Assembly (NCBI GenBank): GCA_016282155.1 | Contig: JAEEJY010000014.1 | Span: forward strand, 1 to 45,078 | Length of the DNA stretch: 45,078 nucleotides | Direction: 5' to 3' | Origin: Caryophanales bacterium | GTDB lineage: Bacteria; Bacillota_I; Bacilli_A; RF39; UBA660 | Shown: piece by piece, positions 17,348 to 39,959 of the stretch | Numbering within the stretch: position 1 is the first letter of the stretch | How the letters are laid out: each line of letters starts with the position of its first letter | Position numbers and translations under genes: made by a program | Notes under the pieces: model-generated | Database searches by the model: none | What the model saw: only the letters and a program-made list of their open reading frames with translations | What the model was told of the DNA's origin: nothing

Positions 17348-19099
17348 ATGAATTTAAAAGATTTATATATAGATTTTTTTGTAAGTAAAGGACATAAACA
17401 AATACCTAGTGCTCCTGTAGTACCAGAAAATGATCCTTCAGTATTATTTAATACAGCCGGTATGCAACCATTAATCCCATATTTAATGGGACAACCTCAT
17501 CCATATGGAACTAGATTATGTGATTACCAAAAATGTGTAAGAACTAATGATTTAGATAATATTGGGGATACTTATCATCATACATTCTTTGAAATGTTAG
17601 GTAACTGGAGTTTAGGAGATTATTTTAAAGAAGAATCAATTACTTGGAGTTTTGAATTATTAACTAAAGTATTAAATATTCCTGTTGAAAGATTAGCGGT
17701 AACTATCTTTAAAGGAAATGATATTATTCCATTTGATCAAGAAGCTCATGATATGTGGATTAAAATGGGTATTAGTGAAGATAGAATAGTACCTACAGAA
17801 GATGATAATTTCTGGATAGCTGGTGAAACAGGACCTTGTGGACCTGATACAGAAATTTTTTACTGGCGTAGTAATGATCCAATCCCAACAAAATTTGATA
17901 CTGAAGATGAACGTTGGGTAGAAATTTGGAATAATGTATTTATGCAATATAATAAAAAGGCTGACGGTACAGTTGAAGAATTACCTAAGAAGAATGTTGA
18001 TACAGGTATGGGGCTTGAAAGAGTTGCTGCTGTTTTAGAAGGAGTAACAGATAATTATAAATCAAGTGTATGGACTCCTGTAATTAAAAAAATAGAAGAA
18101 ATAACAAACTTACCTTATGAAGGCAATGAAAAATCAATGCGTATTATTGCTGACCATTTACGTACAGCTATCTTTATTTCGGCCGATCCAGCTGGTATTA
18201 AACCTTCTAATACTGATCAAGGTTATATCTTAAGAAGATTAATTAGACGTGCTATTCGTCATGCTAAGAAATTAAATATTGATATTAATAGTAATTGGGA
18301 AGAAGAAATTGCTTTAGTAATTTTATCTTTATATGATAAATACTATAGTGAATTAAAAGATAATAGAGAAGTTGTTTTAGAAGTACTTAAAAATGAAAAA
18401 ATTAAATTTAATCGTACTCTAGAAAAAGGATTAAGAGAATTTAATAAAGTATCAGATAAAGATATTGATGGTATAACAGCATTCCATTTATTCGATACTT
18501 ATGGATTCCCAATTGAATTAACTGAAGAAATGGCTAAAGAGTTAGGCATTAAAGTTGATGTTGAAGGATATAAAGCTAAATTTAAAGAACACCAAGAATT
18601 ATCAAGAACTAATAGCGCTGGTAAATTTAAAGGTGGTTTAGCAGGTAACTCAGAAATTGAAACTAGATATCATACAGCAACCCACTTATTAAATGCTGCT
18701 TTAAAAGTAGTAGTTAATAAAGATGTTCATCAAAAAGGTTCAAACATAACTGATGAACGTATGCGTTTTGACTTTAGTTGTGATCATAAGTTAAGTGATG
18801 AAGAAAAAGCTAAAACTGAAGCTTTAGTAAATGAATGGATTAAGGCCGGTCTTGATGTAACAGTAGAATCTATGAGTAAAGAAGATGCTATTAAGTCCGG
18901 AGCTGAATGCATGTTTATTGAAAAATATCCAGATGTAGTTACTGTATACTCTATTGGTAATAGTGAATATGGTATTGTTTCTAAAGAATTATGTGGTGGT
19001 CCTCATGTTAAAAATACAAGTGAATTAGGACATTTCCATATTGCTAAAGAAGAAGCAAGTAGTGCTGGCGTAAGAAGAATAAAAGCTATCTTAGATTAA
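17348..19099 (+). CDS. alaS: Alanyl-tRNA synthetase, short form lacking the C-terminal (C-Ala) domain
   Basis: 583 residues against about 875 for most bacterial enzymes. The catalytic class II domain is complete (FNTAGMQPLIPYLMG, HHTFFEMLGNWSLGDYF, GMGLERV, RIIADHLRTAIF). The middle domain carries the tRNA-binding region (GYILRRLIRRAIRH). The editing domain is also complete, with zinc ligands in HTATH and CGGPH. The protein ends at IKAILD, right after editing; DHHA1/C-Ala is absent. No remnant of it follows, since a terminator overlaps the stop. The motif QPHPYGTRLCDYQKCVRT differs from the usual bacterial wording and recalls the short AlaRS of Patescibacteria (recollection, not a search). 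AGGAG precedes the ATG. Confidence 0.93.
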   Translation: MNLKDLYIDFFVSKGHKQIPSAPVVPENDPSVLFNTAGMQPLIPYLMGQPHPYGTRLCDYQKCVRTNDLDNIGDTYHHTFFEMLGNWSLGDYFKEESITWSFELLTKVLNIPVERLAVTIFKGNDIIPFDQEAHDMWIKMGISEDRIVPTEDDNFWIAGETGPCGPDTEIFYWRSNDPIPTKFDTEDERWVEIWNNVFMQYNKKADGTVEELPKKNVDTGMGLERVAAVLEGVTDNYKSSVWTPVIKKIEEITNLPYEGNEKSMRIIADHLRTAIFISADPAGIKPSNTDQGYILRRLIRRAIRHAKKLNIDINSNWEEEIALVILSLYDKYYSELKDNREVVLEVLKNEKIKFNRTLEKGLREFNKVSDKDIDGITAFHLFDTYGFPIELTEEMAKELGIKVDVEGYKAKFKEHQELSRTNSAGKFKGGLAGNSEIETRYHTATHLLNAALKVVVNKDVHQKGSNITDERMRFDFSCDHKLSDEEKAKTEALVNEWIKAGLDVTVESMSKEDAIKSGAECMFIEKYPDVVTVYSIGNSEYGIVSKELCGGPHVKNTSELGHFHIAKEEASSAGVRRIKAILD

Positions 19100-19145: not shown

Positions 19146-20138
19146 ATGAAAAAAGGTTTTACATTAATTGAGTTACTAGCGGTAATCATTATTCTTGGAA
19201 TTATAGCTTTAATAGCTATACCTGTAATTGGAAATATTATTGATGAAGCAAGAGTAGGGACAGCGGAACAAAACGCTGTTAGTTTTGTTGACACTGTTGA
19301 TAAACAAATAACTATTAATTCGATGAATTCTAATAGCGCTGATGATATTAATGATGGAACTTATACTGTCCCTTTAGATTTTAAATATAATGTTAAAATA
19401 AAAGGACAAACACCAACTAGTGGCTGGTTAGAAGTTAGTGATGGTAGTGTAAGTAAATATTCTCTAGTAGTTGGTGGCTATACAATTACATACAACGGAA
19501 TTAGTAAATCAATCGTTGAAGGTACAGTTGTATCTAACCAACCTAAAATAATATATCGCTATAGTAGTGATGAATTATATGTAGGGGATAAGATAGATTT
19601 AAAAAACAAAAAAATCACTTCGCATCATGTGTGGAGTGATAGTCAAAATAAATATATTGACCCTAATATAACAAATAATATGGTAGGTATCTATTCAACA
19701 AACTTAGATGACGTATTAACTGTTTCAACAAATTATAATGGTGATTCAGTAGCGGAAAGAAACAGTGTTGTTTACTTAAAACATACTGTTGATGAAGAAG
19801 GTATCATTACAAAATCTGAAACATGCGTAAAAACTTCATGGGGAACATTCTGCCAAACTGGAGGCGAAGGTGTATTTAACTCAACTAACGGGCAATGGAA
19901 TGATTCTAAATATGCAGCTAAGAAAAATACAATGTTAGATTTTTATAAATGGAATACAAGTACTAATACATCAGAATATAGTGGTTTTTCTTGTAGTGTG
20001 TATTCTTCAGATTCATACTGTATAAATGTTGCAGAAGGATCTTATATTCATTCGATAGGAGATGCATATTCATTTGATTATGCTGCTCATGTTAATTGTG
20101 GCGTATATGCAAATGGACGTTCTAAGTGTTGGGAATAA
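19146..20138 (+). CDS. Type IV pilin-like protein 1
   Basis: 330 residues. MKKG-FTLIELLAVIIILGIIALIAIP is a textbook class III (prepilin) signal: cleavage after Gly4, Phe at +1 and Glu at +5 of the mature protein, followed by the hydrophobic assembly helix. The mature part has a coiled segment and then a large C-terminal extracellular domain with several Cys, including SETCVKTSWGTFC and four or five more near the end. It shares the order of blocks YRYSSDELYVGDKIDL, GIYSTNLDDVLTVS and the SWG-C motif with the next gene, so the two are paralogues. First gene of a three-gene cassette; the assembly ATPase, platform protein and peptidase are not in this window. Confidence 0.85.
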   Translation: MKKGFTLIELLAVIIILGIIALIAIPVIGNIIDEARVGTAEQNAVSFVDTVDKQITINSMNSNSADDINDGTYTVPLDFKYNVKIKGQTPTSGWLEVSDGSVSKYSLVVGGYTITYNGISKSIVEGTVVSNQPKIIYRYSSDELYVGDKIDLKNKKITSHHVWSDSQNKYIDPNITNNMVGIYSTNLDDVLTVSTNYNGDSVAERNSVVYLKHTVDEEGIITKSETCVKTSWGTFCQTGGEGVFNSTNGQWNDSKYAAKKNTMLDFYKWNTSTNTSEYSGFSCSVYSSDSYCINVAEGSYIHSIGDAYSFDYAAHVNCGVYANGRSKCWE

Positions 20139-20154
20139 AGAAAGGTAGATAGAT

Positions 20155-21192
20155 ATGAAAAAAGGTTTCACGTTAATAGAATTGCTAGCGGTTATCTTAA
20201 TACTAGGAATAATAGCTTTAATCGCTGTACCTGCAGTTAGTAATATAGTTGAAGATGCTAAAAAAGGAGCAACAGAACAAAGCGTTAATCAATTTATTAA
20301 TGCTATTGATAAACAAATAGCGATTAATCAAATGAATTCTGATCCAACAGATGATATTAATGATGGAACTTATGATATACCTTTAGATTCTAAATATAGA
20401 GTTAAATTAAAAGGACAAACTCCAACTGATGGTTGGGTAAAAATAGAAGATGGTAATGTTAGTGAATACTCTCTAGTAATAGGAGATTATACAGTATCAT
20501 ATGATGGTACTAATAAGACAATTACAGAAGGAAATGTACAAAAATTAGGGCCAGCAGTAGTTTATAGGCTTAGTAGTGATTTCTTATTTATTGGTGATAA
20601 AATAGATTTAGTAAATAAAACAATAACAAACTACACAAAGTTTAATTATATTGGAAATAAAGATCATATTGATGTGCCAACGAATGAAGATTTTATCAAT
20701 GTTCCAACAGATAAAACAAAACCAATGACTGGTATTTATTCAACAAATATAGATGATGTTTTGACTGTGTCAATTAAACCGGATGGAACACCAGTAGGAA
20801 GTAAAAATAACATAAATTATCTAAAACATACAATAGATGAATATGGAATAATAACTAAAACCGAATTATGTAATATTACGTCGTGGGGAACACTATGTAG
20901 AGAATCATACGCAACATATAATGAAGAAACTAAAAAATGGATAAATAATAAATATGAAGAACAAGTAGTAGAATTATCGAATTTTTATAAATGGGACAGC
21001 AAAACGTCCACATCGGCATATGAAGGTGTAACAGATATGAATGGAACATACGGAACAGATACAGGACAAACCGGGTTTTCTGTTCGTTATTTTGTTGGAT
21101 CTGATAGTGCTGTAGTATATGATAATGGCTATATTGATGCACGTGGCTCATTTTCTTGTGAAATTTACTATGGTGCGTCTTCGTGTTGGTAA
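20155..21192 (+). CDS. Type IV pilin-like protein 2
   Basis: 345 residues. The prepilin signal MKKG-FTLIELLAV is followed by an assembly helix and an extended C-terminal domain. It is a diverged copy of the previous gene: TDDINDGTYDIPLDSKYRVKLKG parallels its counterpart, as do the blocks around VYRLSSDFLFIGDKIDL, IYSTNIDDVLTVS and ITSWGTLC. It has fewer Cys and a longer middle insert (residues about 165-190). The ribosome binding site is AGAAAGG, 16 bases after the first pilin stop, with no promoter between. Likely a minor pilin or pseudopilin subunit exposed on the surface. Confidence 0.85.
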   Translation: MKKGFTLIELLAVILILGIIALIAVPAVSNIVEDAKKGATEQSVNQFINAIDKQIAINQMNSDPTDDINDGTYDIPLDSKYRVKLKGQTPTDGWVKIEDGNVSEYSLVIGDYTVSYDGTNKTITEGNVQKLGPAVVYRLSSDFLFIGDKIDLVNKTITNYTKFNYIGNKDHIDVPTNEDFINVPTDKTKPMTGIYSTNIDDVLTVSIKPDGTPVGSKNNINYLKHTIDEYGIITKTELCNITSWGTLCRESYATYNEETKKWINNKYEEQVVELSNFYKWDSKTSTSAYEGVTDMNGTYGTDTGQTGFSVRYFVGSDSAVVYDNGYIDARGSFSCEIYYGASSCW

Positions 21193-21247
21193 CTGGCTCG
21201 GCTGTAAAAATTAATAAAAATAATATGAAAAGGATGGTGTATCCTAT

Positions 21248-22588
21248 ATGAAAAAAGGTTTTACATTAATAGAATTAATGGCGGTAATTGTTATTTTAGG
21301 TGTTATTGCCTTAATAATGGTTCCGGTAACAAGTAATATGATATCTAAAGCAAGAGAAAAATCTGCTTTAGAATCAGCTCAAAACTATCTTAAATTATTA
21401 GGACAAGAACTATCTTTAGGAGAAATGGAAGACAATTCTTTAGAAGATGGTGAATATACTATTGATGATATTAATGAAACAGATATTGTAGTTAAAGGTA
21501 ATAAACCTGACAGTGGTAGTATCAATATAACTGACGGTAAAATAGGAGATTCAGTTTTAGTATTTGGTGACTATACTTTTAACTGTCGTAAATATAAATG
21601 TACTGCGGGTGAACTTGAATTAGAAGAACCTGATGTAGAAATAATCTTTAATGATGAAAATCATAATGGAGAAAGAGATTTCGGTGAAACTATAAGTATC
21701 GGTGATGAAGAATTCTATATTATTTCCTTTGATGAGAGTACACATAAGACTAGAGCTTTAGCTAAATATCCACTTAACGTAGGATATGAATTATCTAAAG
21801 ATGGTGAAAAAGAATTTGTTAATAACAATGATGTAGCGTATTATTCTGATTTCGGTGGAATTTCTTTAAGTGGTGTTACTCATACTAAATTAAAACCGTC
21901 ATCTATAAAGCAAGATTCGAGTATAGCTGGAGCTATAATAAAATTTAGTTCTAATTTTTCTACGTCAACAATCAGAGCAAAAGGTGTTATTAATTTTGAA
22001 AGAACTTCTACGGCAGTAACAGTAGATGATGATTTTAATGTTGAGAATTATTCTTCCTACTGGATTAATGCTAGTGGTAACTTGCTATCTAAGTATGGTT
22101 CTAGTTATCCAGCAAATGTGTATGATAGTAATAGTAATATATATTCATATATTAATGAATATGTTGAAGGATTAAAAAATATCACGCAAGAAGAAATAAC
22201 AGGGGATCTTTTAAAACTCGATGAAATGATAGGGCATGGATGTGAAATTGAAATTACCGAAGATACAGGTGATAGTGATAATGGACCTTCTGCAACGTGT
22301 ATGAAAGGTAGGATATGTACTCAGGAAGATGTGGATGATGCACAAATATATCCTGATGCTAATATGAATCCTGTAACATGTACATCAGTTGGTCAAAAAA
22401 TAGTGGATAACAGCAGTGATTTGTTTTTTGGGTCATCATATTGGTTAGGTACGGCTAGTAGTGCGACTGAAGTTTATGCTACATTCTCTTTAGAAAGCGG
22501 TGGAATGCCGTATGATATGCTTAATATTATTCCAGTGCCACCATTAGCGGCATACTATTTTGCTGTTCGACCAGTTATAGAATTCTAA
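21248..22588 (+). CDS. Type IV pilin-like protein 3 with DUF6273-like C-terminal domain
   Basis: 446 residues. The prepilin signal MKKG-FTLIELMAVIVILG is followed by a helix and a 100-residue stem. From about residue 135 a separate domain begins (FGETISIGDEEFYIISFDE) and ends with SYWLGTASS and FAVRPVIEF. This ending is typical of lectin-like/DUF6273-type surface domains of Firmicutes. The SD sequence AAAAGGAT lies in a small perfect hairpin (21231-21245), which could lower translation relative to the first two. The larger tip-like domain suggests that it caps a pilus or pseudopilus; this is inference. Confidence 0.8.
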   Translation: MKKGFTLIELMAVIVILGVIALIMVPVTSNMISKAREKSALESAQNYLKLLGQELSLGEMEDNSLEDGEYTIDDINETDIVVKGNKPDSGSINITDGKIGDSVLVFGDYTFNCRKYKCTAGELELEEPDVEIIFNDENHNGERDFGETISIGDEEFYIISFDESTHKTRALAKYPLNVGYELSKDGEKEFVNNNDVAYYSDFGGISLSGVTHTKLKPSSIKQDSSIAGAIIKFSSNFSTSTIRAKGVINFERTSTAVTVDDDFNVENYSSYWINASGNLLSKYGSSYPANVYDSNSNIYSYINEYVEGLKNITQEEITGDLLKLDEMIGHGCEIEITEDTGDSDNGPSATCMKGRICTQEDVDDAQIYPDANMNPVTCTSVGQKIVDNSSDLFFGSSYWLGTASSATEVYATFSLESGGMPYDMLNIIPVPPLAAYYFAVRPVIEF

Positions 22589-30117: not shown

Positions 30118-30145
30118 ATTTATAGTAGAATAAAGGGTGGTTATA

Positions 30146-33100
30146 GTGAAACTATATGTAGCAAGCAGTAAAAGAATAACTAAATACACTTTGCCAATTA
30201 AATTGGAAGAGTTTTTTTCTGTTGAATATCAACCTGATAACACTCGTGAAAAATATCCTATTACCATCATTTCTAACGAAACAGGTAAATGGTATTTAAA
30301 GAGTAATGGTAGTGTCGATATTGTTTCAAAAGATTCGGTAATTGATGAAGCAGAATTAATTGAGTATCGCTGCTACTTTGCTAAATTAATTGGTATTGAT
30401 GGATATACAATTATTTATGCTATGCCTGATTATGAAGCAGAATTATATAGTTTAGATTATAAACCTTTAAATAAAATTACAATCGGATCAAATAGTGATG
30501 CTAATATTTATTTTAATCATCCATTAATTGAAAAAGAGCATGCAGTTATCACTAAAGAAGATGACGGGTATAGTATTAAAGCAAGTGATAATGCTCGTAT
30601 AATGATGTTTGTTAATGATAAACAAGCTAAATATAAAAAATTAAAATACGGAGATATTATTTTTATTAATGGTTTAAGAATAATATGGTTACCAAATTCA
30701 TTTAAAATAAATAATCCAGGAAAACAAATACTTGTTAAAGGAATTGATCCTTACTTAGTAAAAGGGGAAACTAATAATGCTGGAACAACTCCCGTAAGTG
30801 ATGAAGAAGCAAGTAAAGAATTATATCGTGAAGATGATTATTTCTATCATATTCCTAAAATTGAAGAAGTAATTGAAGAGAAGACTATTGTTATTGACCA
30901 ACCTCCATCAGGAGAAAAGGGTGGTGAATTACCAGCAATATTCTCTATTGGAGCTTCTCTTACAATGTTAGCCTCATCATTTGTTATGGGTTACAGTTTA
31001 TATAATAATCTTCGTTCTGGTAAAACAATAATGGACTGTTTAGGACAAATTGTTATGTTAGTAGCGATGCTAATAAGTAGTTTAATTTTACCAAGATTAT
31101 TAAGTTTATATACTAAACGTTTAAAGAAAAAACGTGAGAAGTATCGTCAACATAAATATAAAAAATATTTAGCGGATAAAACTAAAGAAATTGAAGATGA
31201 AATTGCTTTAGAAGAAAAGATACTTAACGAAAATAATGATGACACAGCTAAATGTATTGAAGTAGTATCAAAAGTAATAAAGAGTAATATTTGGAATAGA
31301 GAAATAGTAGATGATGATTTCTTAAATATAAGTTTAGGAGTAGGAGATATTCCGATTAAATTTAATATTCAATCTCCTGAAGAACACTTTACTTTAGATG
31401 AAGATAATTTATTTACGGATGTTCTTAAAGTAGTAGAAGATCATAAATATCTACATAATGTTCCAATTATGTTTGATTTTAGAACTAACAACATTAGTTC
31501 AATGATATTTAATTGTAGTTATCGTAATGACTATGTTAATGAAGTAATGTTAAAGTTTGCTACATTCCATAGTGGATCAGATTTAAAGATAATTATTTTA
31601 ACTGATAAGGCTAATGAGTCTTACTGGTCATATGCTAAAATACTTCCACATTGTTGGAGTGAAGATAAGAGTTTAAGATTCTTTGCATCTAGTTTAGAAG
31701 AAGCTAATGAAATATCTTCTTATTTAGATACCGAATTTAAAAATCGTAAGGAAGAAGCAGCTAATAACAAAGATGAAAATGCCGATAAAAAAGATATTTA
31801 TAAAAACTACAGTCCTTATTATTTAATAATCACAGATAATTATTTAAATTATAAGAACTTACAAATTATTTTAGATATCTTAAAAGAAAAGAATAACTTA
31901 GGTTTTTCTATTCTTACAATGGCTGATTCAATGAAATATCTACCTAATAGATGTGCTAATTTTATTGAAATTAGTGATACTAATAGTTGTATTTTAACTA
32001 AGAAGGTAGATTCTAAATCACAAATTAAATTTAGAAATAGTGACTTCCAAAATATTGATATGGAAGGTTTATGTACGAAGTTAGCTAATATTCCATTAAT
32101 GCCTAAAGATGGATTAAAAGAGCTTCCTACATCACTTTCATTCCTTGAAATGTTTAAAGTTTCAAAGATTGAACAATTAAATATTTTAAATAGATGGCAA
32201 ACTAATAATCCAGTTACATCATTATCAACAGTAATTGGTGTTCATAGTGACTTAGAACCATTTAAACTAGATTTACATGAAAAATTCCATGGACCACACG
32301 GATTAATAGCTGGTTCTACTGGATCTGGTAAATCAGAATTTATAATTACATATATTTTATCTTTAGCAATTAACTATCATCCTTATGAAGTTCAATTTGT
32401 TCTAATTGATTACAAGGGTGGTGGACTTGCAGGTGCTTTCTTAAATAAAGAAACAGGAGTTAAATTACCACACTTAGTTGGTACCATAACAAACTTAGAT
32501 ACTAGTGAAATGAATCGTACTTTAGTATCTATTAATAGTGAGTTAAAACGTCGTCAAAGAGTATTTAATGCTACTAAAGATGCTTTAGGAGAAAGTACAA
32601 TTGATATTTATAAATATCAAAGATTATACCGTGAAGGTAAAGTTAAAGAACCAATGGCTCATCTATTTATTATCAGTGATGAGTTTGCGGAACTTAAAGC
32701 TCAACAACCAGACTTCATGGATGAATTAATATCAACTGCCCGTATAGGTCGTTCTTTAGGAGTTCACTTAATCCTAGCAACACAAAAACCTAGTGGTGTA
32801 GTTAATGATCAAATTTGGTCAAACTCTAAATTTAAAGTTTGTCTTAAAGTACAAGATCGTTCTGATTCAATGGAAATGCTTAAGAAACCTGATGCTGCAA
32901 GTATTAAAAATGCAGGACGTTTCTATTTACAAATTGGTTATGATGATTACTTTGATATTGGTCAATCAGGTTGGGGTGGTGCTAAATACGTACCATCAAA
33001 TAAGATTGTTAAAAAACTTGATGAATCAATTGGTTTTGTAAATAATACAGGTTATGTGATTAAGAGCATTGATGAAGAAGAAAAAGAAAAAGAAACAACT

Positions 33101-34765
33101 GTAGATTTAGGAGATCAATTAACTAATATAGTTAAATATATTTATAATCTAGGTGTTAAAAATAATTTAAAAACAAATAATTTATGGTTAGATAAAATCC
33201 CTGAATATATTTTTGTAGAACAATTAAAACAAAAATATGGATATAAAGCAATGCCATACGTTATTAATCCAATTATTGGTGAATATGATAGCCCAGCTTC
33301 CCAATATCAAGGTTTATTAACTTTAGATTTAACAAATAAAGGTAATACCCTTATTTATGGACAAAGTGGTTCGGGTAAAGAAAATTTATTATGTACTTTA
33401 ATTTGGAGTATCATTACAACTCATACTCCAGAAGAAGTAAATATCTATGTTATTGACTGCGGAGCTGAGATGCTTAAGATGTTCTACCGTATTCCACATG
33501 TAGGAGATGTCGTAACAAGAGAAGAAACTGAAAAAGTAACTGGTATATTTGAAAAAGTATATGAAGAAATTGAAAGAAGAAAAGATTTATTTGCTGACTA
33601 TGCTGGTAGTTATGTTAATTACTGCGCTAATAGTGGTAAGAAACTTCCTTTAATTACAGTTATTATTAATAATTATGATAATTTTATTGAAAACTTTGCT
33701 AAACTCGGTGAAGATGTTATGTCTTTATATCGTGAGTGTAGTAAATATGGAATTGTATTTGTTGTTACAGCGGTAAGTACGCAAGCAGTTCGTATGCGTA
33801 TGAGTCAATATTTTGATAACTTTATAACTCTTCAACTTCCTAAAGATGAAGATTATCGTAATAACTTTGATGTAAAGAGGGGATTAATCCCAGCAAGAAT
33901 ATTTGGTCGTGGACTTGTTAAGTTAGATAATGAATTCTTTGAATTCCAAACTGCTTACTTCTGTAATCCAAACCAAATGAGTCAAGTTATTAAGATGGCT
34001 GCTGATAAATTAGCACCAGCTTATAAAGTTAAAGCCGATAAGATTATGGTAATTCCTAACTCCGTAGGATTAAACAAAGTTATGCCATTCTTAGAAGGAT
34101 ATATGGCTATGCCAATAGGATATGATATTGATAAGAAAGAGATTGTTAAGTATAACTTTGTTAGTGATCGTATTAACATGATTTTATCTAATGAAATGTC
34201 AATTCATATGGAACTTGTATATGCGGTTATCCGTATGCTTACAACAATTCCAAATACAAATATTATGATTGTCGATTTTGTAAATGCTGTTGATCGTTCT
34301 TTTGATAAGGTAAAAGTATTTAAAGAATCATTTGATGAAGTATTAATTGCGATAGCTAAACAATTAAAAGTTGATAAAGAAGCTAAGACAAAGAATTTCT
34401 ATATCTTTGTAGCTCCGGGAGCAATGAAGTTTAAACTTCGTGATGAAACTAAGCAAATAGTTAATGAAATGTTTAGTAATGCTAATGCTCTTGAAAATAA
34501 TTTCTTCATCTTTGCGGATGATTACGATGATATTAAGAACCTTAAAGTCGAAGAATGGTACCGTACAAATGTAAATACAAGCAATGGTATTTGGATGGGT
34601 GATGGTGTTGGTTCTCAAATGGCTATTAACATAACTAATTTAACATTAGAGGATCGTAAATTAAATTATCCATGTATGGCGTTTATGGTTAATAATGGTC
34701 GTAAAAAGAATATTAAATATATCATAGATGAAGATCTAGTAGTAGGTGATACTAATGAAAAATAA
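30146..34765 (+). CDS. essC: Type VII secretion ATPase EssC (FtsK/SpoIIIE family)
   Basis: 1539 residues, the motor of type VIIb secretion in the membrane. The N-terminus has a beta-rich first FHA-like region and a second FHA domain (about 110-185; ITIGSNSDANIYFNHP, HAVI). Two membrane helices lie at about 265-320. The first FtsK-type ATPase has canonical Walker A GSTGSGKS at 723-730 and the LIDYKGGG Walker B. In the second, Walker A reads GQSGSGKE (1072-1079), with Glu instead of Ser/Thr. The third has no Walker A, as is usual for EssC. Start is GTG 30146, since the GTG at 30137 lies inside the ribosome binding site AAAGGGTGG. Overlaps esaB by 11 bases. Confidence 0.95.
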   Translation: MKLYVASSKRITKYTLPIKLEEFFSVEYQPDNTREKYPITIISNETGKWYLKSNGSVDIVSKDSVIDEAELIEYRCYFAKLIGIDGYTIIYAMPDYEAELYSLDYKPLNKITIGSNSDANIYFNHPLIEKEHAVITKEDDGYSIKASDNARIMMFVNDKQAKYKKLKYGDIIFINGLRIIWLPNSFKINNPGKQILVKGIDPYLVKGETNNAGTTPVSDEEASKELYREDDYFYHIPKIEEVIEEKTIVIDQPPSGEKGGELPAIFSIGASLTMLASSFVMGYSLYNNLRSGKTIMDCLGQIVMLVAMLISSLILPRLLSLYTKRLKKKREKYRQHKYKKYLADKTKEIEDEIALEEKILNENNDDTAKCIEVVSKVIKSNIWNREIVDDDFLNISLGVGDIPIKFNIQSPEEHFTLDEDNLFTDVLKVVEDHKYLHNVPIMFDFRTNNISSMIFNCSYRNDYVNEVMLKFATFHSGSDLKIIILTDKANESYWSYAKILPHCWSEDKSLRFFASSLEEANEISSYLDTEFKNRKEEAANNKDENADKKDIYKNYSPYYLIITDNYLNYKNLQIILDILKEKNNLGFSILTMADSMKYLPNRCANFIEISDTNSCILTKKVDSKSQIKFRNSDFQNIDMEGLCTKLANIPLMPKDGLKELPTSLSFLEMFKVSKIEQLNILNRWQTNNPVTSLSTVIGVHSDLEPFKLDLHEKFHGPHGLIAGSTGSGKSEFIITYILSLAINYHPYEVQFVLIDYKGGGLAGAFLNKETGVKLPHLVGTITNLDTSEMNRTLVSINSELKRRQRVFNATKDALGESTIDIYKYQRLYREGKVKEPMAHLFIISDEFAELKAQQPDFMDELISTARIGRSLGVHLILATQKPSGVVNDQIWSNSKFKVCLKVQDRSDSMEMLKKPDAASIKNAGRFYLQIGYDDYFDIGQSGWGGAKYVPSNKIVKKLDESIGFVNNTGYVIKSIDEEEKEKETTVDLGDQLTNIVKYIYNLGVKNNLKTNNLWLDKIPEYIFVEQLKQKYGYKAMPYVINPIIGEYDSPASQYQGLLTLDLTNKGNTLIYGQSGSGKENLLCTLIWSIITTHTPEEVNIYVIDCGAEMLKMFYRIPHVGDVVTREETEKVTGIFEKVYEEIERRKDLFADYAGSYVNYCANSGKKLPLITVIINNYDNFIENFAKLGEDVMSLYRECSKYGIVFVVTAVSTQAVRMRMSQYFDNFITLQLPKDEDYRNNFDVKRGLIPARIFGRGLVKLDNEFFEFQTAYFCNPNQMSQVIKMAADKLAPAYKVKADKIMVIPNSVGLNKVMPFLEGYMAMPIGYDIDKKEIVKYNFVSDRINMILSNEMSIHMELVYAVIRMLTTIPNTNIMIVDFVNAVDRSFDKVKVFKESFDEVLIAIAKQLKVDKEAKTKNFYIFVAPGAMKFKLRDETKQIVNEMFSNANALENNFFIFADDYDDIKNLKVEEWYRTNVNTSNGIWMGDGVGSQMAINITNLTLEDRKLNYPCMAFMVNNGRKKNIKYIIDEDLVVGDTNEK

Positions 34766-35009
34766 AATCTTAGTAGAAATAATTATTCCTAAAATAGATG
34801 AAAGATATAATTTATTTATTCCTGTTAATAAAAGAGTTGGTAAAGTAGTATTACTTATCAATAAAGCCATATTTGAAATGTCTTCCGGACGTTATCAAAT
34901 AAGTGATACAGTATCTTTATATAATCGTGAAACAGGAGAAAAATATGATCCTAATAGTATGATATATGAAACTAATATTCGTAATGGCGCAATATTAGTA
35001 TTGGACTAG
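34755..35009 (+). CDS. esaB: EsaB/YukD ubiquitin-like type VII secretion protein
   Basis: 84 residues with ubiquitin-like fold expected (LVEIIIPKIDERYNLFIPVNKRVG, then DTVSLYNRETGEKYDPN and ending RNGAILVLD). Length and pattern match EsaB/YukD, a small cytosolic regulator/component of type VIIb machines. Start ATG 34755 has TAGGTGAT upstream; an in-frame GTG at 34746 lies within that site. Translation is coupled to essC by an 11-base overlap. A terminator encloses its stop, so essC-esaB is a two-gene transcript. Confidence 0.88.
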   Translation: MKNKILVEIIIPKIDERYNLFIPVNKRVGKVVLLINKAIFEMSSGRYQISDTVSLYNRETGEKYDPNSMIYETNIRNGAILVLD

Positions 35010-35034
35010 TTTACACTAGTCCTTTTATTTTTTT
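35003..35034 (+). terminator. Intrinsic terminator after esaB
   Basis: GGACTAGT (35003-35010) pairs with ACTAGTCC (35015-35022), loop TTAC, T-tract with one A. The esaB stop is in the left arm. Confidence 0.85.
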
Positions 35035-35045
35035 TCTAAATAAAG

Positions 35046-35057
35046 TATACTTATAAT
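35046..35057 (+). promoter_or_regulatory. Probable -10 region of 35071..36630
   Basis: TATACT (35046) and TATAAT (35052) lie close together before AGAGGGTGATAAG and the ATG. No clear -35 box. Confidence 0.4.
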
Positions 35058-35070
35058 AGAGGGTGATAAG

Positions 35071-36630
35071 ATGATAAGAAGAATTAAAATTTTTTCTATC
35101 GATAAATTTAAAACAAAACAAAAAATGTTTAAGGTAGCATTTGCTGGTACTATAGCGGCTGCTGTATTATCAGGATGTTCTTCTAGATTTGGTAGTTATG
35201 AAACACATATTGATACACCAGTTACATACGAAACTAATGTTGATGATTATGCTAATAACATGACTAATACTTATGAAGAAATAGATTTAGGTAAGTATAA
35301 TTCCTTAATAGGAACAGGAGCTTATCTAGATAGTGAAGATGTCGCTAGTGAAATAGCAAATATTGATAATATCAAGGTGACATATGCTGGTAGTGAAACA
35401 TTTGGTATTGATGAAGCTTTAGCTAATTATAGTAAAGTAGATCGTAGTGATAATAGTAGTAATTTTAGTATGACAACAGATGAGTTAGTTAAAATAGTTA
35501 AAGCTAATAATAGTAAATACTTACAAGAAACTGGTACTAAGTACTATGAAGAATTAAAAGATAAAGATTTAGAACAAATATGTACTTATATTATGAATAC
35601 TGTTAATTACCAAACAAGTAAAACAAATATATCTACCGGTAATTTACAGAATAAACTTAATAATTTAAAAGTACTTAGTTATTCTAGTTTTGGATATGCT
35701 TTTAATAATCCAGCTGAAGATATTATCGCAGTTAATATGAAAGGCATAGACTCAATAGATAAAGATAATGCTTTAGAAAGAATTATCTCCCATGAATCAA
35801 ACCATTTTCTTCAAGCAGATCAAAAAGGGGATAGCTATGAATATGGTTATGGTACAGGATATCGTTTTAATGACGGTAATACTGGTATGCAAAATGAATT
35901 CTTATATGAAGTAAGTGCGGAAAGTATGGCTATGGAACAATTAAATGATGATGGAATACTTTTATATGAAAATGCTTTAAGAGGATTAAATGCTATCAAA
36001 TCATCTTATATCTTAAGTGGTGATGCTTTAGAATTAGAACATTTATCATTCCAAAACGATATAAATAAAGTTTATGATTACTTTAATTGTGAAACAGAAG
36101 AAGATAAAATGGAAATTCTTAATATGTTAAATGCCTATAATTTAACTAAGGATTTTCCTAGTGCTAAAGAATATTTTGAAGCACAAAATATGAATACATC
36201 GGCTAAAGAAGAATATAAGAATAGTTTATCAAGTAGTATTGCTACTACTTTATCAAAGAATTTTTATAAAGATTTAGCACACAAATTAGAAAATAGAAAT
36301 GACTATTTACTTAAAGATGTATTCTCCGTAGTTAGAATGCAAGAAATGAGTGTTATATATGATAGATCGGGTAATTCCGAAGAGTTTGTAGCTAATTATA
36401 ATGTTATGCAAGATGAACTATTTAATGATATAGCGGAAAATATGGGTGTTGATTATCAAGATATTAAATCTGCTTATATGGAATACGTAAATAGTATGAC
36501 TTCATATCAACCATCTAGTTTATTAAGTGAAGAAGAAAATAATTATATGAATAAGCTATATAACTCAATAGGTGGATATGTTAATACTAATACATTTAGT
36601 GTTCAAAGCGAATACACCCATAAAATGTAA
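35071..36630 (+). CDS. Lipoprotein with HExxH motif, putative extracellular zinc peptidase in the type VII locus
   Basis: 519 residues. An unusually long basic N-region is followed by a hydrophobic stretch and lipobox LSGC (Cys36), so the protein should be a lipid-anchored outer-surface lipoprotein. HESNH at 241-245 gives an HExxH zinc site; Glu280 or Glu284 in EVSAES lies about 40 residues on and could be the third ligand. I do not recognise the family. Most of the rest is helical. It lies between esaB and the WXG100 genes, in the same direction, so it may process secreted substrates or open the wall for the machine; this is inference. Signal and motif are seen directly; activity is not shown. 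Confidence 0.7.
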   Translation: MIRRIKIFSIDKFKTKQKMFKVAFAGTIAAAVLSGCSSRFGSYETHIDTPVTYETNVDDYANNMTNTYEEIDLGKYNSLIGTGAYLDSEDVASEIANIDNIKVTYAGSETFGIDEALANYSKVDRSDNSSNFSMTTDELVKIVKANNSKYLQETGTKYYEELKDKDLEQICTYIMNTVNYQTSKTNISTGNLQNKLNNLKVLSYSSFGYAFNNPAEDIIAVNMKGIDSIDKDNALERIISHESNHFLQADQKGDSYEYGYGTGYRFNDGNTGMQNEFLYEVSAESMAMEQLNDDGILLYENALRGLNAIKSSYILSGDALELEHLSFQNDINKVYDYFNCETEEDKMEILNMLNAYNLTKDFPSAKEYFEAQNMNTSAKEEYKNSLSSSIATTLSKNFYKDLAHKLENRNDYLLKDVFSVVRMQEMSVIYDRSGNSEEFVANYNVMQDELFNDIAENMGVDYQDIKSAYMEYVNSMTSYQPSSLLSEEENNYMNKLYNSIGGYVNTNTFSVQSEYTHKM

Positions 36631-36648
36631 AACGCTTGACAGAATATA

Positions 36649-36677
36649 TTGCGATATAAATAAATATATGTTATATT
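36649..36677 (+). promoter_or_regulatory. Promoter of the WXG100 gene cluster
   Basis: TTGCGA, 17-base spacer, TATATT with extended TG-T. A consensus TTGACA at 36636 has no -10 at the right distance. A 36-base leader leads to GAGGTGAT and the TTG start codon. Confidence 0.6.
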
Positions 36678-36713
36678 TTGGATAAGATAGATTGCTAGTA
36701 TAGAGGTGATATA

Positions 36714-37031
36714 TTGGAAAACATAAGTGGAGTTAATGATCAAAAAGTTGATCTACTTATTAAGGATATTTATTCTTATTATGATCGTATAAGAGAAATA
36801 TTTAATGAAGTTGAAAACATTATGGATAGTACAAGTACTTTCTATAAGTCAGATACTGCTAATTTAATAAGACATGAATTCCAACAATATAAAGATAAGT
36901 TCTATATTGCAGGCAAAAATATCCTAAGTTATGCCGATGACATGGAAAAAGTTAAGAAAAACTACGCTAATAGAGTAGTAGAAGCAACAACTTATTTAAA
37001 AGTCAAAGGTGAAGAAAGGTACGGGAAATAG
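36714..37031 (+). CDS. WXG100-like small helical protein (no WxG motif)
   Basis: 105 residues, two helices joined by a short turn, which is the WXG100 layout. The turn region reads STFYKSDTANLIRHEF, so the Trp-x-Gly of the family is missing. The size, position as first gene after the cluster promoter, and helical pattern suggest a partner of one of the other Esx-like proteins or an Lap-type adaptor. Start codon is TTG with GAGGTGAT seven bases upstream, which is rare here. Low-confidence family assignment. Confidence 0.6.
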   Translation: MENISGVNDQKVDLLIKDIYSYYDRIREIFNEVENIMDSTSTFYKSDTANLIRHEFQQYKDKFYIAGKNILSYADDMEKVKKNYANRVVEATTYLKVKGEERYGK

Positions 37032-37040
37032 GAGGTATTT

Positions 37041-37358
37041 ATGAGTACAGGTTCAAGTGAATTAGGAATTTCAAGTTTAACAACTGGTATATCAAGATCA
37101 GGTATGGCTCAATATGAAGAAGATTTAAAAACTAATGTTTTAACAAATGTTAAGACAAAAATTGAAGATGTTGAGGCAGTCATCACAGCTATTAATGGCG
37201 GATGGCAAGGTGAATCTCGTGATAAATTCTTAAAAGATTTTGAAAAAGTAAGAAAAACTCTTGTTGAAGATTTAGAAAAAGAATACAAAGATGTTCAAAA
37301 TCGTTTAGATGAATTACAAGATAATTACTTTAGACAAGATAAAGATTTATATAACTAA
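37041..37358 (+). CDS. WXG100 family secreted protein (EsxA-like)
   Basis: 105 residues. The WxG motif is in GGWQGESRD, between two long helices. The C-terminus has YFRQD, fitting the YxxxD/E signal used for type VII export. These are the classic marks of EsxA-type substrates that leave the cell as helical dimers. The N-terminal 20 residues are Ser/Gly-rich. AGGAGG lies well placed for its ATG, and the first gene of the cluster is ten bases upstream. It is the best candidate for the core Esx substrate of this locus. Confidence 0.88.
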   Translation: MSTGSSELGISSLTTGISRSGMAQYEEDLKTNVLTNVKTKIEDVEAVITAINGGWQGESRDKFLKDFEKVRKTLVEDLEKEYKDVQNRLDELQDNYFRQDKDLYN

Positions 37359-37373
37359 AATAGGAGGAATAAT

Positions 37374-37859
37374 ATGGGAAGTTTTTCAACAGAAGCAACT
37401 CGTGCTTCACAAATAGAAACAAGCGCTGCAGTTAGTAATTTTACTGGTGAAAGAGAAGGAACAAGATCTGGATATGCTGGTGGTGGATTATTTGGAAACA
37501 GTAATGTATCTAGTGATTATGACGTAGTTGGTATTAATGCAACTAAAGTACCAGGAATGCGTGATGCTATTAGAACATATGTTAAAAATATCCAAGATTA
37601 TTTAGATCAAATTGGTGCTAATACTTCATCTTCACAAGCTGGAGCCATCCAAAATGAAGATGTAAAAGCTGCTGTAGATAAATATATTGCTGCAGTTAAA
37701 GAATATGCTCAAAATTTAGTATCATATATTTTGACATTCAGCGATAAATTAAAAGACGTTCAAGACGCTTGGGAAAAACAAGCCAAATCTATGGCTGGAA
37801 ATATCGATTCAGCTGCTGGTGGATTTGGTACTTCAGGCGGATATACAGAAAAATTATAA
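37374..37859 (+). CDS. Small helical type VII-associated protein with Gly-rich ends, 161 aa
   Basis: 161 residues. A disordered Ser/Thr/Gly-rich N-terminus (with RSGYAGGGLFGNSN) leads to two helices (about 60-85 and 105-145) and a Gly-rich C-terminus. DAWEKQAKSMAG near the end has a Trp but not the WxG turn. I cannot name its family. Ribosome binding site TAGGAGGAAT is among the strongest here, so high expression is expected. It may be a secreted substrate or structural partner of the EsxA-like protein 15 bases upstream. Confidence 0.6.
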   Translation: MGSFSTEATRASQIETSAAVSNFTGEREGTRSGYAGGGLFGNSNVSSDYDVVGINATKVPGMRDAIRTYVKNIQDYLDQIGANTSSSQAGAIQNEDVKAAVDKYIAAVKEYAQNLVSYILTFSDKLKDVQDAWEKQAKSMAGNIDSAAGGFGTSGGYTEKL

Positions 37860-37862
37860 TAA

Positions 37863-38183
37863 ATGATTGATGCATTAAGACACGAAAAAGCAAGATATCA
37901 AGTTTTATATGATGCTGTAAAAAATGTCGCAGGAAAAATTAGACAAAGTAGTTCTAATCTAGATGGGGCAGTTAACGGAATAAGGGATGCTTATAATGTT
38001 AATGATGAGGCTTACGATAAGGGCAAAATAAGAATTACTAAAGAAAGATTAAATAGTAAGGCAAGTGAACTTACAGGTTCTATTATGCCAATGATAAGTA
38101 ATAAGATTAGTTCAATCGAGGCAGAAATCTCACGTCTAGAGGAAGAAGAAAGAAGAGCTTTAGAAGAAATGATGAAAAACTAG
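37863..38183 (+). CDS. Coiled-coil type VII-associated protein (DUF5082-like)
   Basis: 106 residues, almost entirely helical with two long coiled segments and a Glu-rich end (SRLEEEERRALEEMMKN). The pattern resembles the DUF5082/YwqI-type small proteins that accompany LXG toxins in type VIIb loci. No LXG toxin is found in the window. The ATG follows the preceding stop by three bases and has no ribosome binding site, so translation should depend on coupling. The stop is inside a terminator hairpin. Confidence 0.55.
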   Translation: MIDALRHEKARYQVLYDAVKNVAGKIRQSSSNLDGAVNGIRDAYNVNDEAYDKGKIRITKERLNSKASELTGSIMPMISNKISSIEAEISRLEEEERRALEEMMKN

Positions 38184-38201
38184 ACTTGTCTAGTTTTTTA
38201 A
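38175..38201 (+). terminator. Terminator inside the type VII gene cluster
   Basis: A 10-bp stem (38175-38184 with 38189-38198, loop CTTG) and T-tract of six. The next ATG is at 38214 and no promoter fits in between, so this should act as a partial terminator that lowers expression of the downstream genes. Confidence 0.7.
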
Positions 38202-38213
38202 TTAGGAGGATGT

Positions 38214-38504
38214 ATGGAAGTATATATTGATACAGATAAAGTTAATAATGCTGGTAAAGATATTATGATGTTATCGAATGATCTAAACTCAGCTATTGAT
38301 GAAATGTTTAATCGTTTAACTTTAATGTCATCAAAAACTCATGAATGGGTTGGCGATAGTACTTTAAAGTATGAGAAGGCTTGCAAAGTAGATAAAGAAG
38401 AATATGTTGAACTTAAAAATGAAGTATATAATTTAGGTAAATTTTTAACTGATATCGCAAATAGTTATGATGTTACTGTTAAGAAAGATGAGTACAGAGG
38501 ATAA
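38214..38504 (+). CDS. WXG100-like protein
   Basis: 96 residues with two helices. The turn has HEWVGDSTLKYEKA, containing Trp-Val-Gly, the WxG motif. The C-terminal helix ends DVTVKKDEYRG; YVELKNE gives a YxxxxxE rather than the exact export signal. TTAGGAGGATGT is a strong ribosome binding site. It overlaps the next gene by one base. Probably a second Esx-type protein or a partner for the cluster. Confidence 0.75.
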   Translation: MEVYIDTDKVNNAGKDIMMLSNDLNSAIDEMFNRLTLMSSKTHEWVGDSTLKYEKACKVDKEEYVELKNEVYNLGKFLTDIANSYDVTVKKDEYRG

Positions 38505-38812
38505 TGCGTTTAAGTTTTAATAGTGATAGAGTTAATAATCCTGTAATTAATAGTTTAACAAATACAATAGATACTTTAAGTGATGCGATTAGACAAGCTA
38601 GTAGTTTAGATATACCGGGAGGCTTTTCTGGAGCTTCTACTTTAGCTAATTTAGATAATTTTTTAGAAGCAGAAAAAGATAAACTTGTTTATGCTAAAGA
38701 ATGGGCAGAAACTAGTATTAGAGACTATACTAATCTGGAAGATGAAATATTAAGGAATACTAAAACAGTTACTCCTAGTCCAGCTAAAATAAGAGAAAGC
38801 AATATTAAGTAA
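38504..38812 (+). CDS. Hypothetical type VII-associated small helical protein
   Basis: 102 residues, no recognised family. A first helix (about 10-35), a Gly/Ser turn (PGGFSGAST) and a second helix (about 48-88) give a WXG100-like hairpin without the Trp. It ends with a Pro-rich tail. The ATG overlaps the upstream stop (TAATG), which implies that the two proteins are made in equal amounts and may pair. The end lies in a terminator stem. Confidence 0.6.
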   Translation: MRLSFNSDRVNNPVINSLTNTIDTLSDAIRQASSLDIPGGFSGASTLANLDNFLEAEKDKLVYAKEWAETSIRDYTNLEDEILRNTKTVTPSPAKIRESNIK

Positions 38813-38826
38813 ATATTGCTTTTTTT
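38796..38826 (+). terminator. Intrinsic terminator ending the WXG cluster
   Basis: AAAGCAATATT (38796-38806) pairs with AATATTGCTTT (38812-38822), T-tract to 38826. The stop codon falls in the loop region. Confidence 0.85.
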
Positions 38827-38833
38827 AATATCT

Positions 38834-38839
38834 TATAAT
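38834..38839 (+). promoter_or_regulatory. Probable -10 of 38875..39942
   Basis: TATAAT after the terminator T-tract, with AAGGGAG before the ATG. No clear -35 box. Confidence 0.4.
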
Positions 38840-38874
38840 ATAATATTTTTATAAGAGTAAAAGGGAGTATATAT

Positions 38875-39942
38875 ATGAATAAAACAGGAATATTACCTAT
38901 AGGTACAGTAGTAAATGCAAGAAAAAAATTATATATGATAACAGGATATTTTACATATGCTTATGATAATGGTATTAAGAAATATGATTATTCAGCATGT
39001 TTATATCCATCAGGATTTGAAACAACAGGTTTAAATAGTAATGAAATCCTTGATGTAGTATTTGAAGGGTATAAGGATAATATATTTAATACTTTTAAAG
39101 ATGAACTTGAAAGTAATGTCTTAACTTCACCAGTTCCAAGTGAGCCTACAAAAGTAGATATTTATTTTGATGAAAACGGTGTTGTTGTAAGTGATGGTAC
39201 TACAAAGAAAATAGAAGATGAAAAATATCGTAAATTAGTAGAGAATCCTTTTGTCACAAGTTTTAAAGAAACTAAGAAAGAAGAAGTAGATAAAAATTCT
39301 TCTAACTGGCCTATATTTAAAGATATACAATTTGATAGTGAAGGTAATGTAATTGTTGCTGAAGAATATGGTAAAATTGATATTCCTTCCGATTTAGGAG
39401 TTTCATTTGAAGAAGATAGTGTTGTTTTAAGTGGAAGTAGTGAAAAGAAAACTGAAACAACAATTAGATTTGATGAAAATGGTACAGTAATATCTGATAC
39501 TGTAAGTTCTAAAAATACTAATAGTAATGGAACAACTAACCGTACACAAAATATAAATATTAAATTTGATAGTGAAGGTAATGTAATTAGTGATAATACT
39601 CCAGTTGTTAGATCTTTAGAAACTAAACTTGATAAAGATGGTAATGTTCTTGAAAATAAAGAAATTAAAAAAGATACTTTAAAAGGTTTGACTTTTGATG
39701 AAAATGGTTTCGTTATTGAAGCCCAAAAAGAAACTAAACCTAAAGAAGAATATATGTTTGATGAAAATGGTTTTGTAATTTCTCCAGCTAAGGAAGAAAA
39801 ACCAAAAGAAGAAGTTAAAGATGAAATCATGTTTGATGAAAACGGATTTGTAATATCTACAAAAAAGGCTGAGAGTAAAGCGGAAGCTAAAAATGAAACT
39901 CCAAGCTGGTATGATGAATTTGATGGTGAATTATTTGGGTAG
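38875..39942 (+). CDS. DUF4176-like protein with C-terminal FDENGxVIS repeats
   Basis: 355 residues. The first 75 (ILPIGTVVNARKKLYMITGY, KYDYSACLYPSG, VVFEGYKD) match DUF4176, a domain found next to type VII genes and LXG toxins. The rest is a tail of eight clear copies and one degenerate copy of a short unit: FDENGVVVS, FDSEGNVIV, FDENGTVIS, FDSEGNVIS, LDKDGNVLE and three FDENGFVI. Spacers are Lys/Glu-rich. No signal peptide or membrane helix. The Asp/Asn/Gly turns could bind Ca2+ or a partner; that is speculation. It closes the type VII locus, with its own terminator. Confidence 0.75.
   Translation: MNKTGILPIGTVVNARKKLYMITGYFTYAYDNGIKKYDYSACLYPSGFETTGLNSNEILDVVFEGYKDNIFNTFKDELESNVLTSPVPSEPTKVDIYFDENGVVVSDGTTKKIEDEKYRKLVENPFVTSFKETKKEEVDKNSSNWPIFKDIQFDSEGNVIVAEEYGKIDIPSDLGVSFEEDSVVLSGSSEKKTETTIRFDENGTVISDTVSSKNTNSNGTTNRTQNINIKFDSEGNVISDNTPVVRSLETKLDKDGNVLENKEIKKDTLKGLTFDENGFVIEAQKETKPKEEYMFDENGFVISPAKEEKPKEEVKDEIMFDENGFVISTKKAESKAEAKNETPSWYDEFDGELFG
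39154..39870 (+). repeat. Coding repeat: eight or nine FDENGxVIS-type units
   Basis: Units of the form [FL]D[ESK][NDE]G[NTVF]V[IVL] occur about every 20-60 residues. The last three copies are nearly identical and closest together, so the array probably grew at its 3' end. Confidence 0.75.
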
Positions 39943-39959
39943 TAAAACTACCCTTTTTA
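39937..39959 (+). terminator. Intrinsic terminator at the end of the type VII locus
   Basis: GGGTAGT (39937-39943) pairs with ACTACCC (39947-39953), then five T. nadK starts 18 bases later with no clear promoter, so some read-through may supply nadK. Confidence 0.75.

What the first reader, a model, noticed from the sequence alone, without database searches (positions are those of the whole stretch)
30146..39942. Reduced type VII secretion locus without EsaA, EssA, EssB or an LXG toxin
The sequence shows EssC, an EsaB-like protein, WXG100-like genes and a DUF4176 protein in one run bounded by tig and nadK. Known type VIIb machines also need the membrane proteins EsaA, EssA and EssB. None is here, and no LXG or other polymorphic toxin with its immunity gene is seen. 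Either the missing parts are elsewhere in the genome or this is a variant machine. The lipoprotein peptidase and repeat protein may take over some roles.
Basis: partly seen in the sequence, partly recalled or inferred. Interest (0 to 1): 0.65.

Follow-up and report, generated by a model that had tools for sequence, protein, structure and literature searches.

The report
Type VII secretion locus lacking EsaA/EssA/EssB
A gut-associated lineage of small-genome uncultured bacteria carries a protein-export machine built around the usual motor (EssC), its small helper EsaB and small WXG-type cargo proteins, but none of the three membrane partners that the textbook Bacillota version needs; such pared-down variants are known, but this one fits none of the published subtypes and sometimes brings its own surface-anchored metallopeptidase.

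Summary
The window carries EssC, a ubiquitin-fold EsaB, six small WXG100-like proteins, a DUF4176 protein and a membrane-anchored HExxH...ExxAE peptidase, between tig and nadK. EssB, EssA, EsaA and LXG profiles find nothing in the rest of the genome. This is not a split or half-sequenced cluster: 89 of 193 relatives have EssC and none has EssB; EsaA-like hits that were checked are YhgE/Pip proteins, and EssA-like hits fall in kinase transmembrane segments.

The lineage's EssCs form one clade with its own marks: ATPase domain D1 is intact in 71 of 71, D2 is non-canonical in all 71, and the FHA lacks the phosphothreonine motif. In S. aureus, D2 Walker residues hold EssC to EsaA/EssA/EssB and FHA2 binds EssB, so both contacts look relaxed here. 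The peptidase plus six WXG-like genes recur beside one EssC subclade.

T7SS without EsaA/EssA/EssB is already published (T7SSc-T7SSj). This one matches none of those subtypes on the features tested, and its genome shows no kinase or PP2C match, so I call it a new variant of a known kind. How export works with EssC as the only conserved membrane part is inferred, not shown.

The parts
30137..34765 (+). essC: FHA, two transmembrane helices, ATPase domains D1-D3 (1542 aa)
   Evidence: TIGR03928 948 bits over cut-off, FHA PF00498 residues 114-175, FtsK_SpoIIIE 176 bits; hydrophobic segments about 265-285 and 296-318
30476..30661 (+). FHA domain of EssC without the phosphothreonine-binding motif
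   Evidence: strict pThr motif in 0 of 60 family EssCs
32312..32335 (+). D1 Walker A GSTGSGKS, intact
   Evidence: K, S, D and E of D1 Walker A/B conserved in 71 of 71 family EssCs
33359..33382 (+). D2 Walker A GQSGSGKE: Glu in place of Ser/Thr
   Evidence: residue after the Walker Lys is E/D in 65 of 71 family EssCs; canonical D2 in none; T7SSb references read GKS
33668..33670 (+). D2 Walker B Asn 1178 in place of Asp
   Evidence: N in 66 of 71 family EssCs; D in T7SSb references L218 and L219
34755..35009 (+). esaB-like, ubiquitin fold
   Evidence: found in 51 of 61 EssC loci; AlphaFold pLDDT 96; Foldseek to EccD Ubl of ESX-5, TM 0.71-0.78; weak YukD hits in 13 of 34 orthologues
35003..35022 (+). 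terminator-like hairpin closing essC-esaB
   Evidence: 8-pair stem plus T run
35071..36630 (+). membrane/lipid-anchored HExxH...ExxAE (gluzincin-like) peptidase, 519 aa
   Evidence: H241, E242, H245, E280, A283 and E284 invariant in five aligned members; lipobox LSGC; nine of the ten best family hits lie within about 7 kb of an EssC
36714..37031 (+). WXG100-like (ESAT6_2 type) small protein
   Evidence: NF035934 E=1.3e-6, below cut-off; conserved place in the module
37041..37358 (+). WXG100 protein, likely the EsxA equivalent
   Evidence: PF06013 32.2 bits, cut-off 27.3
37374..37859 (+). 161 aa WXG-like protein with N-terminal extension
   Evidence: family with L042, L077, L082, L088; iterated profile joins the WXG-like set
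37863..38183 (+). 106 aa WXG-like protein
   Evidence: conserved place in the module; TIGR03930 E=0.04 only
38214..38504 (+). 96 aa WXG100-like protein (EWVGD)
   Evidence: NF035934 E=7e-4, TIGR03930 E=0.007
38504..38812 (+). 102 aa WXG-like partner
   Evidence: conserved place in the module; iterated profile
38875..39942 (+). DUF4176 protein with a C-terminal run of DENG-type repeats
   Evidence: PF13780 43 bits, cut-off 25, residues 6-69
39937..39953 (+). terminator-like hairpin closing the second unit

Best explanation
A type VII protein-export system in which EssC is the only conserved membrane component. Shown from sequence: EssC with intact D1, degenerate D2 and an FHA without pThr residues; EsaB; six WXG-like proteins; DUF4176; an extracytoplasmic metallopeptidase. 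Inferred: EssC hexamerises, its transmembrane helices form the pore, EsaB docks on the ATPase as the EccD ubiquitin-like domain does in ESX-5, D1 powers export, D2 is a structural ring that no longer needs to hold EsaA/EssA/EssB, and the WXG-like proteins leave as folded dimers, pairing with each other because no large toxin lies in this cluster. In this EssC subclade the anchored peptidase works outside the membrane, either processing exported proteins (as mycosin does in T7SSa) or opening a path in the wall (as EssH does in S. aureus).
For: EssC over cut-off in 89 of 193 relatives, EssB over cut-off in 0. Positive control: EssB and EssA are recognised in G248 of the same phylum and in B. subtilis. 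EsaB in 51 of 61 EssC loci, WXG-like proteins in 45, and no membrane-protein family in more than a few. WXG100 and EssC co-occur (51/6/38/98, Fisher p 8e-16). D1 intact in 71/71, D2 non-canonical in 71/71. PMC9436818 reports that D2 Walker mutations cost S. aureus EssC its hold on EsaA, EssA and EssB, and that FHA2 is needed for EssB. The peptidase module recurs with conserved content in G000, G155, G117, G130, G109, G054, G080 and G164. Intact frames and terminator-like sites.
Against: No secretion has been shown. In S. aureus the D2 Walker residues are required for secretion (PMC9436818), so a machine with degenerate D2 must differ or fail. A partner encoded elsewhere cannot be excluded: nearly all relatives (188/193) have a Ser/Thr kinase, mostly of about 590 aa, although none is found in this genome. 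Degenerate D2 does not track EssB absence strictly: L220 and L178 show no EssB but keep a canonical D2. The six-member WXG assignment partly rests on iterated profiles of short helical proteins, which can drift.
Confidence: 0.62

Rival explanations
1. The cluster is split: EsaA, EssA and EssB are elsewhere in the genome or were lost from the assembly.
For: The genome is a 39-contig draft, 92.3% complete.
Against: 0 matches for all three in the genome. None of the 89 EssC-positive genomes has EssB over cut-off. The three EsaA-like hits examined score above the YhgE/Pip cut-offs, and the 15 hits do not track EssC. EssA-like hits share contig, strand and frame length with the ~590 aa kinases where compared.
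Confidence: 0.02
2. A different, unrecognised membrane partner encoded away from essC (for example the ~590 aa PrkC-like kinase, in the way TscD/TsdD may stand in for EssB) completes the machine.
For: The published c-j subtypes have extra parts (PMC11217815); the FHA fold is kept, so something probably binds it; 188 of 193 relatives carry a kinase.
Against: The kinase is as common without EssC and is not found in G000, G008, G117 and G137, which have EssC; the FHA lacks pThr residues. The assemblies are drafts.
Confidence: 0.3
3. A derived T7SSd/e-type system that lost its kinase, TsxI and phosphatase.
For: A Coriobacteriales EssC (L173), beside a large protein with a C-terminal transmembrane helix, EsaB and WXG100, falls inside this EssC clade and shares the degenerate D2.
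Against: L173 is a long branch, its locus has EsaB (absent from T7SSd), it was not typed against published T7SSd/e EssCs, and no TsxI, TsxD or TsxF is seen here.
Confidence: 0.2
4. A decaying, non-working remnant.
For: Three partners missing; D2 degenerate.
Against: Full-length frames in almost all relatives, the D2 changes are themselves conserved, D1 is invariant, cargo genes diversify and co-occur with EssC.
Confidence: 0.04

Closest known systems
T7SSb (Bacillus subtilis Yuk, Staphylococcus aureus Ess)
   Same: EssC with FHA and two transmembrane helices, EsaB, WXG100, and DUF4176 in the gene cluster
   Different: no EsaA, EssA, EssB or LXG; D2 Walker A and B degenerate; separate EssC clade
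T7SSc-T7SSj (PMC11217815)
   Same: EssC/TsxC, EsaB/TsxB and WXG100 without EsaA/EssA/EssB
   Different: no kinase, PP2C phosphatase, second FHA protein, vWA or DUF5050 part beside essC here; FHA present (unlike c, g, h), without pThr motif (unlike d, e, j); EsaB present (unlike d)
Mycosin MycP of T7SSa
   Same: membrane-anchored, extracytoplasmic protease coded with the motor
   Different: subtilisin-type serine protease in all ESX systems; here an HExxH metallopeptidase in one EssC subclade
EssH of S. aureus T7SSb (PMC13059805)
   Same: exported envelope enzyme dedicated to a T7SS
   Different: CHAP-domain wall hydrolase needed to place EsaA, which is absent here
Agathobacter rectalis plasmid EssC locus (L220)
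   Same: EssC, EsaB and WXG100 annotated; no EssB, EsaA or EssA annotated
   Different: FHA on a separate protein, canonical D2, other EssC clade, Imm59 genes

Membership tests
T7SSb | EssC ATPase with N-terminal FHA | tested here: met
   TIGR03928 948 bits; one FHA called by Pfam
T7SSb | EssB/YukC | tested here: not met
   PF10140: 0 in own genome, 0 of 193 over cut-off
T7SSb | EsaA | tested here: not met
   TIGR03929: 0 in own genome; relatives' hits that were examined are YhgE/Pip
T7SSb | EssA | tested here: not met
   PF10661: 0 in own genome; relatives' weak hits lie in kinase frames where compared
T7SSb | EsaB ubiquitin-like protein | tested here: met
   fold and profile evidence
T7SSb | canonical Walker A/B in D1 and D2 | tested here: not met
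   D1 71/71, D2 0/71
T7SSb | LXG substrate | tested here: not met
   PF04740: 0 in own genome, 1 of 193 over cut-off, in a 114 aa frame
T7SSc | TsxC without FHA, plus kinase, PPM phosphatase, vWA protein | tested here: not met
   FHA present; PF00069 and PF13672 0 in own genome
T7SSd | no EsaB; kinase; TsxI | tested here: not met
   EsaB present, no kinase found, no large exported protein in the cluster
T7SSe / T7SSj | pThr-binding FHA on TsxC, kinase, phosphatase, DUF6382-FHA protein | tested here: not met
   FHA motif absent; no kinase or PP2C match; no second FHA protein in the cluster
T7SSf | PPM phosphatase, DUF6382-FHA, TadZ-like AAA+ | tested here: not met
   none in the cluster; PP2C_2 0 in own genome
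T7SSg / T7SSh | TsxC without FHA, next to Tad pilus genes | tested here: not met
   FHA present; flanks are tig and nadK
T7SSi | EspG-like and kinase-like membrane partners | tested here: inconclusive
   no Pfam match in the cluster; EspG-like fold not searched genome-wide
T7SSc-j clades | position of EssC in the published tree | not tested
   published TsxC sequences were not on hand; only local references used

The most novel reading that the evidence does not exclude
A complete type VII exporter whose only membrane subunit is EssC: the partner-binding D2 has been turned into an inert structural ring in step with the loss of EsaA/EssA/EssB, so a single ATPase plus EsaB moves WXG-type cargo across the membrane of a walled bacterium.
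Probability: 0.3. Interest if true: 0.75.

Novelty: new variant of a known kind. Interest (0 to 1): 0.52.

Why it matters
It shows that many members of a lineage of small-genome Bacilli carry the motor of T7SSb without the parts that are essential in S. aureus and B. subtilis, and it ties that loss to two changes in the motor itself (D2 Walker residues, FHA pThr site). That makes an open question directly testable: what EsaA/EssA/EssB do that EssC cannot, and whether EssC alone can form the pore.

Tried and rejected
Split cluster: rejected by genome-wide profiles. EsaA hits at E down to 1e-21 looked promising, but the three scanned are YhgE/Pip proteins. EssA hits at the cut-off are transmembrane segments in the frames of ~590 aa kinases where compared. 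Absence of EsaA because the cell has no wall: the window codes for a Mur-type ligase, a D-Ala-D-Ala ligase and an MltG-like protein by my reading of the sequences, and RF39 genomes mostly keep wall genes (PMC10868615); that the window is RF39 is my inference, not a tool result. Peptidase fold: AlphaFold with two rows gave pLDDT 42, not used. Large neighbours of EssC in relatives have no recognisable toxin domain in Pfam. A Clostridia sample centred on L178 was not accepted by the tool.

Full report
What is there. Between trigger factor and NAD kinase the window has one co-directional run of ten genes: essC (30137-34765), esaB-like (34755-35009), a lipobox-bearing peptidase (35071-36630), six small helical proteins (36714-38812) and a DUF4176 protein (38875-39942). 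Terminator-like hairpins follow tig, esaB and the DUF4176 gene, which suggests two transcription units, essC-esaB and the rest. EssC scores 948 bits against the T7SSb EssC model. EsaB has no Pfam match on its own, but its orthologues touch YukD and its confident model (pLDDT 96) matches the ubiquitin-like domain of EccD in ESX-5 among other ubiquitin folds.

Are the missing parts really missing? EssB, EsaA, EssA and LXG profiles give no match in the window's genome. The genome is 92% complete, so one genome alone would not settle it. Over 193 genomes of the order (all one family in this sample), 89 have EssC over its cut-off and none has EssB over its cut-off. EsaA-like hits in 15 genomes do not follow EssC (Fisher p 0.6), and the three scanned score above the YhgE/Pip cut-offs. 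EssA-like hits are transmembrane pieces; where compared by contig and position (G045:C23, G012:C74, G088:C6, G189:C19, G116:C37) they sit in the same ~590 aa frame as a Ser/Thr kinase. EssB and EssA are recognised where they exist: in B. subtilis, and in G248 of the same phylum, where EssA, EsaB and EssB survive next to a transposase-like gene and no essC was found. So the absence is a property of the lineage.

What stays. In 61 EssC neighbourhoods, EsaB is present in 51, WXG-like proteins in 45 and DUF4176 in 20; no membrane-protein family recurs in more than a few. Some loci reduce to EssC, EsaB and two proteins of about 60-80 aa (for example L065, L068). WXG100 proteins follow EssC across genomes (51 with both, 6 WXG100 only, 38 EssC only, 98 neither; p 8e-16).

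The motor itself has changed. In all 71 EssCs of the lineage the D1 Walker Lys, Ser, Asp and Glu are kept, while none keeps a canonical D2: the residue after the Walker Lys is Glu or Asp in 65, and the Walker B Asp is Asn in 66; T7SSb references keep GKS and Asp. The FHA keeps its general pattern but not the phosphothreonine motif (0 of 60). In S. aureus, mutating the D2 Walker residues stops EssC from binding EsaA, EssA and EssB, and FHA2 is needed for EssB (PMC9436818). The match between those results and this lineage is suggestive. It is a correlation on one clade, and two loci elsewhere without EssB (L220, L178) keep a canonical D2, so loss of EssB does not force the change. S. aureus also needs the D2 Walker residues for secretion, so the machine here must work differently at that step, or D2 is kept for its shape.

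The peptidase module. The window's peptidase belongs to a family with HExxH and a downstream ExxAE and an N-terminal signal or transmembrane segment (one copy, L238, reads HESGGH). A profile search over 193 genomes finds it in 20, and nine of the ten best hits lie within about 7 kb of an EssC, in several genera; the tenth (G054) sits with the same six WXG-like genes on a short contig. On the EssC tree nine of ten linked copies fall in one 12-row clade (SH-aLRT 99; 4 changes against 9.6 in shuffles, 0 of 500 as low). The same module without the peptidase occurs in L088. Weaker relatives of the peptidase elsewhere in the genomes are not near an EssC. It is thus a module of one sub-lineage, not a general replacement for EsaA/EssA/EssB.

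How it probably works. EssC is taken to form the hexameric pore and motor with EsaB docked on its ATPase part, driven by D1; the WXG-like proteins are the cargo; the peptidase acts outside the membrane on cargo or on the wall. The anatomy is shown; the pore, the direction of transport and the peptidase substrate are inferred.

Place among known systems. Garrett, Higginson and Palmer (PMC11217815) describe eight subtypes, T7SSc-T7SSj, that lack EsaA/EssA/EssB. That makes the absence known in kind. The window fits none of the eight on the features that could be tested: FHA present, EsaB present, no pThr site, and no kinase, PP2C phosphatase, second FHA protein, vWA or DUF5050 part beside essC; no Ser/Thr kinase or PP2C_2 match was found in its genome. 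T7SSi could not be fully tested. Published TsxC sequences were not on hand, so the tree position against them is untested. A Coriobacteriales EssC (L173) with a T7SSd/e-like neighbourhood falls inside the clade, on a long branch, so a link with d/e remains open. No paper in the searched library describes a T7SS in this lineage.

Limits. Relatives are draft metagenome assemblies; gene calls in relatives come from a simple ORF script; assignment of the shortest WXG-like proteins rests partly on iterated profiles; the lineage name (probably order RF39) is inferred from record titles and genome size, not given by a tool; the trees are quick trees without the mixture model.

Noticed in passing
window 19146-22588: Three consecutive prepilin-like proteins (GFTLIELLAVI-type N-termini) with differing C-terminal parts, without pilus assembly genes recognised beside them in the window.
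   Followed up: no
window 17348-19099: Alanyl-tRNA synthetase-like frame of only 583 aa, shorter than usual.
   Followed up: no
window 10305-10826: Small protein of Pro/Val/Ala/Glu repeats (PVVEAPVAEPTP) with a C-terminal transmembrane helix.
   Followed up: no
L208 8216-11525: G248: EssA, EsaB and EssB kept next to a transposase-like gene, with no essC found: probably a broken T7SSb in the same phylum.
   Followed up: partly
L209-L217: Another family (f14) has EssCs of about 1200-1270 aa with, in most loci, a 640-710 aa protein just upstream (lipoprotein signal and Ig-like C-terminus by eye in L209): possibly a further T7SS subtype with its own surface partner.
   Followed up: partly
L220 7365-11793: Agathobacter rectalis plasmid: EsaB, separate FHA protein, EssC and WXG100 with Imm59 genes; no EssB, EsaA or EssA annotated.
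   Followed up: partly
L222: A record labelled 'Bacteriophage sp.' (MT835518.1, human faeces) carries an EssC locus of this lineage's kind; more likely a bacterial contig than a phage.
   Followed up: no
L083: G055 has two EssC loci close together, one with essC split into two frames.
   Followed up: no
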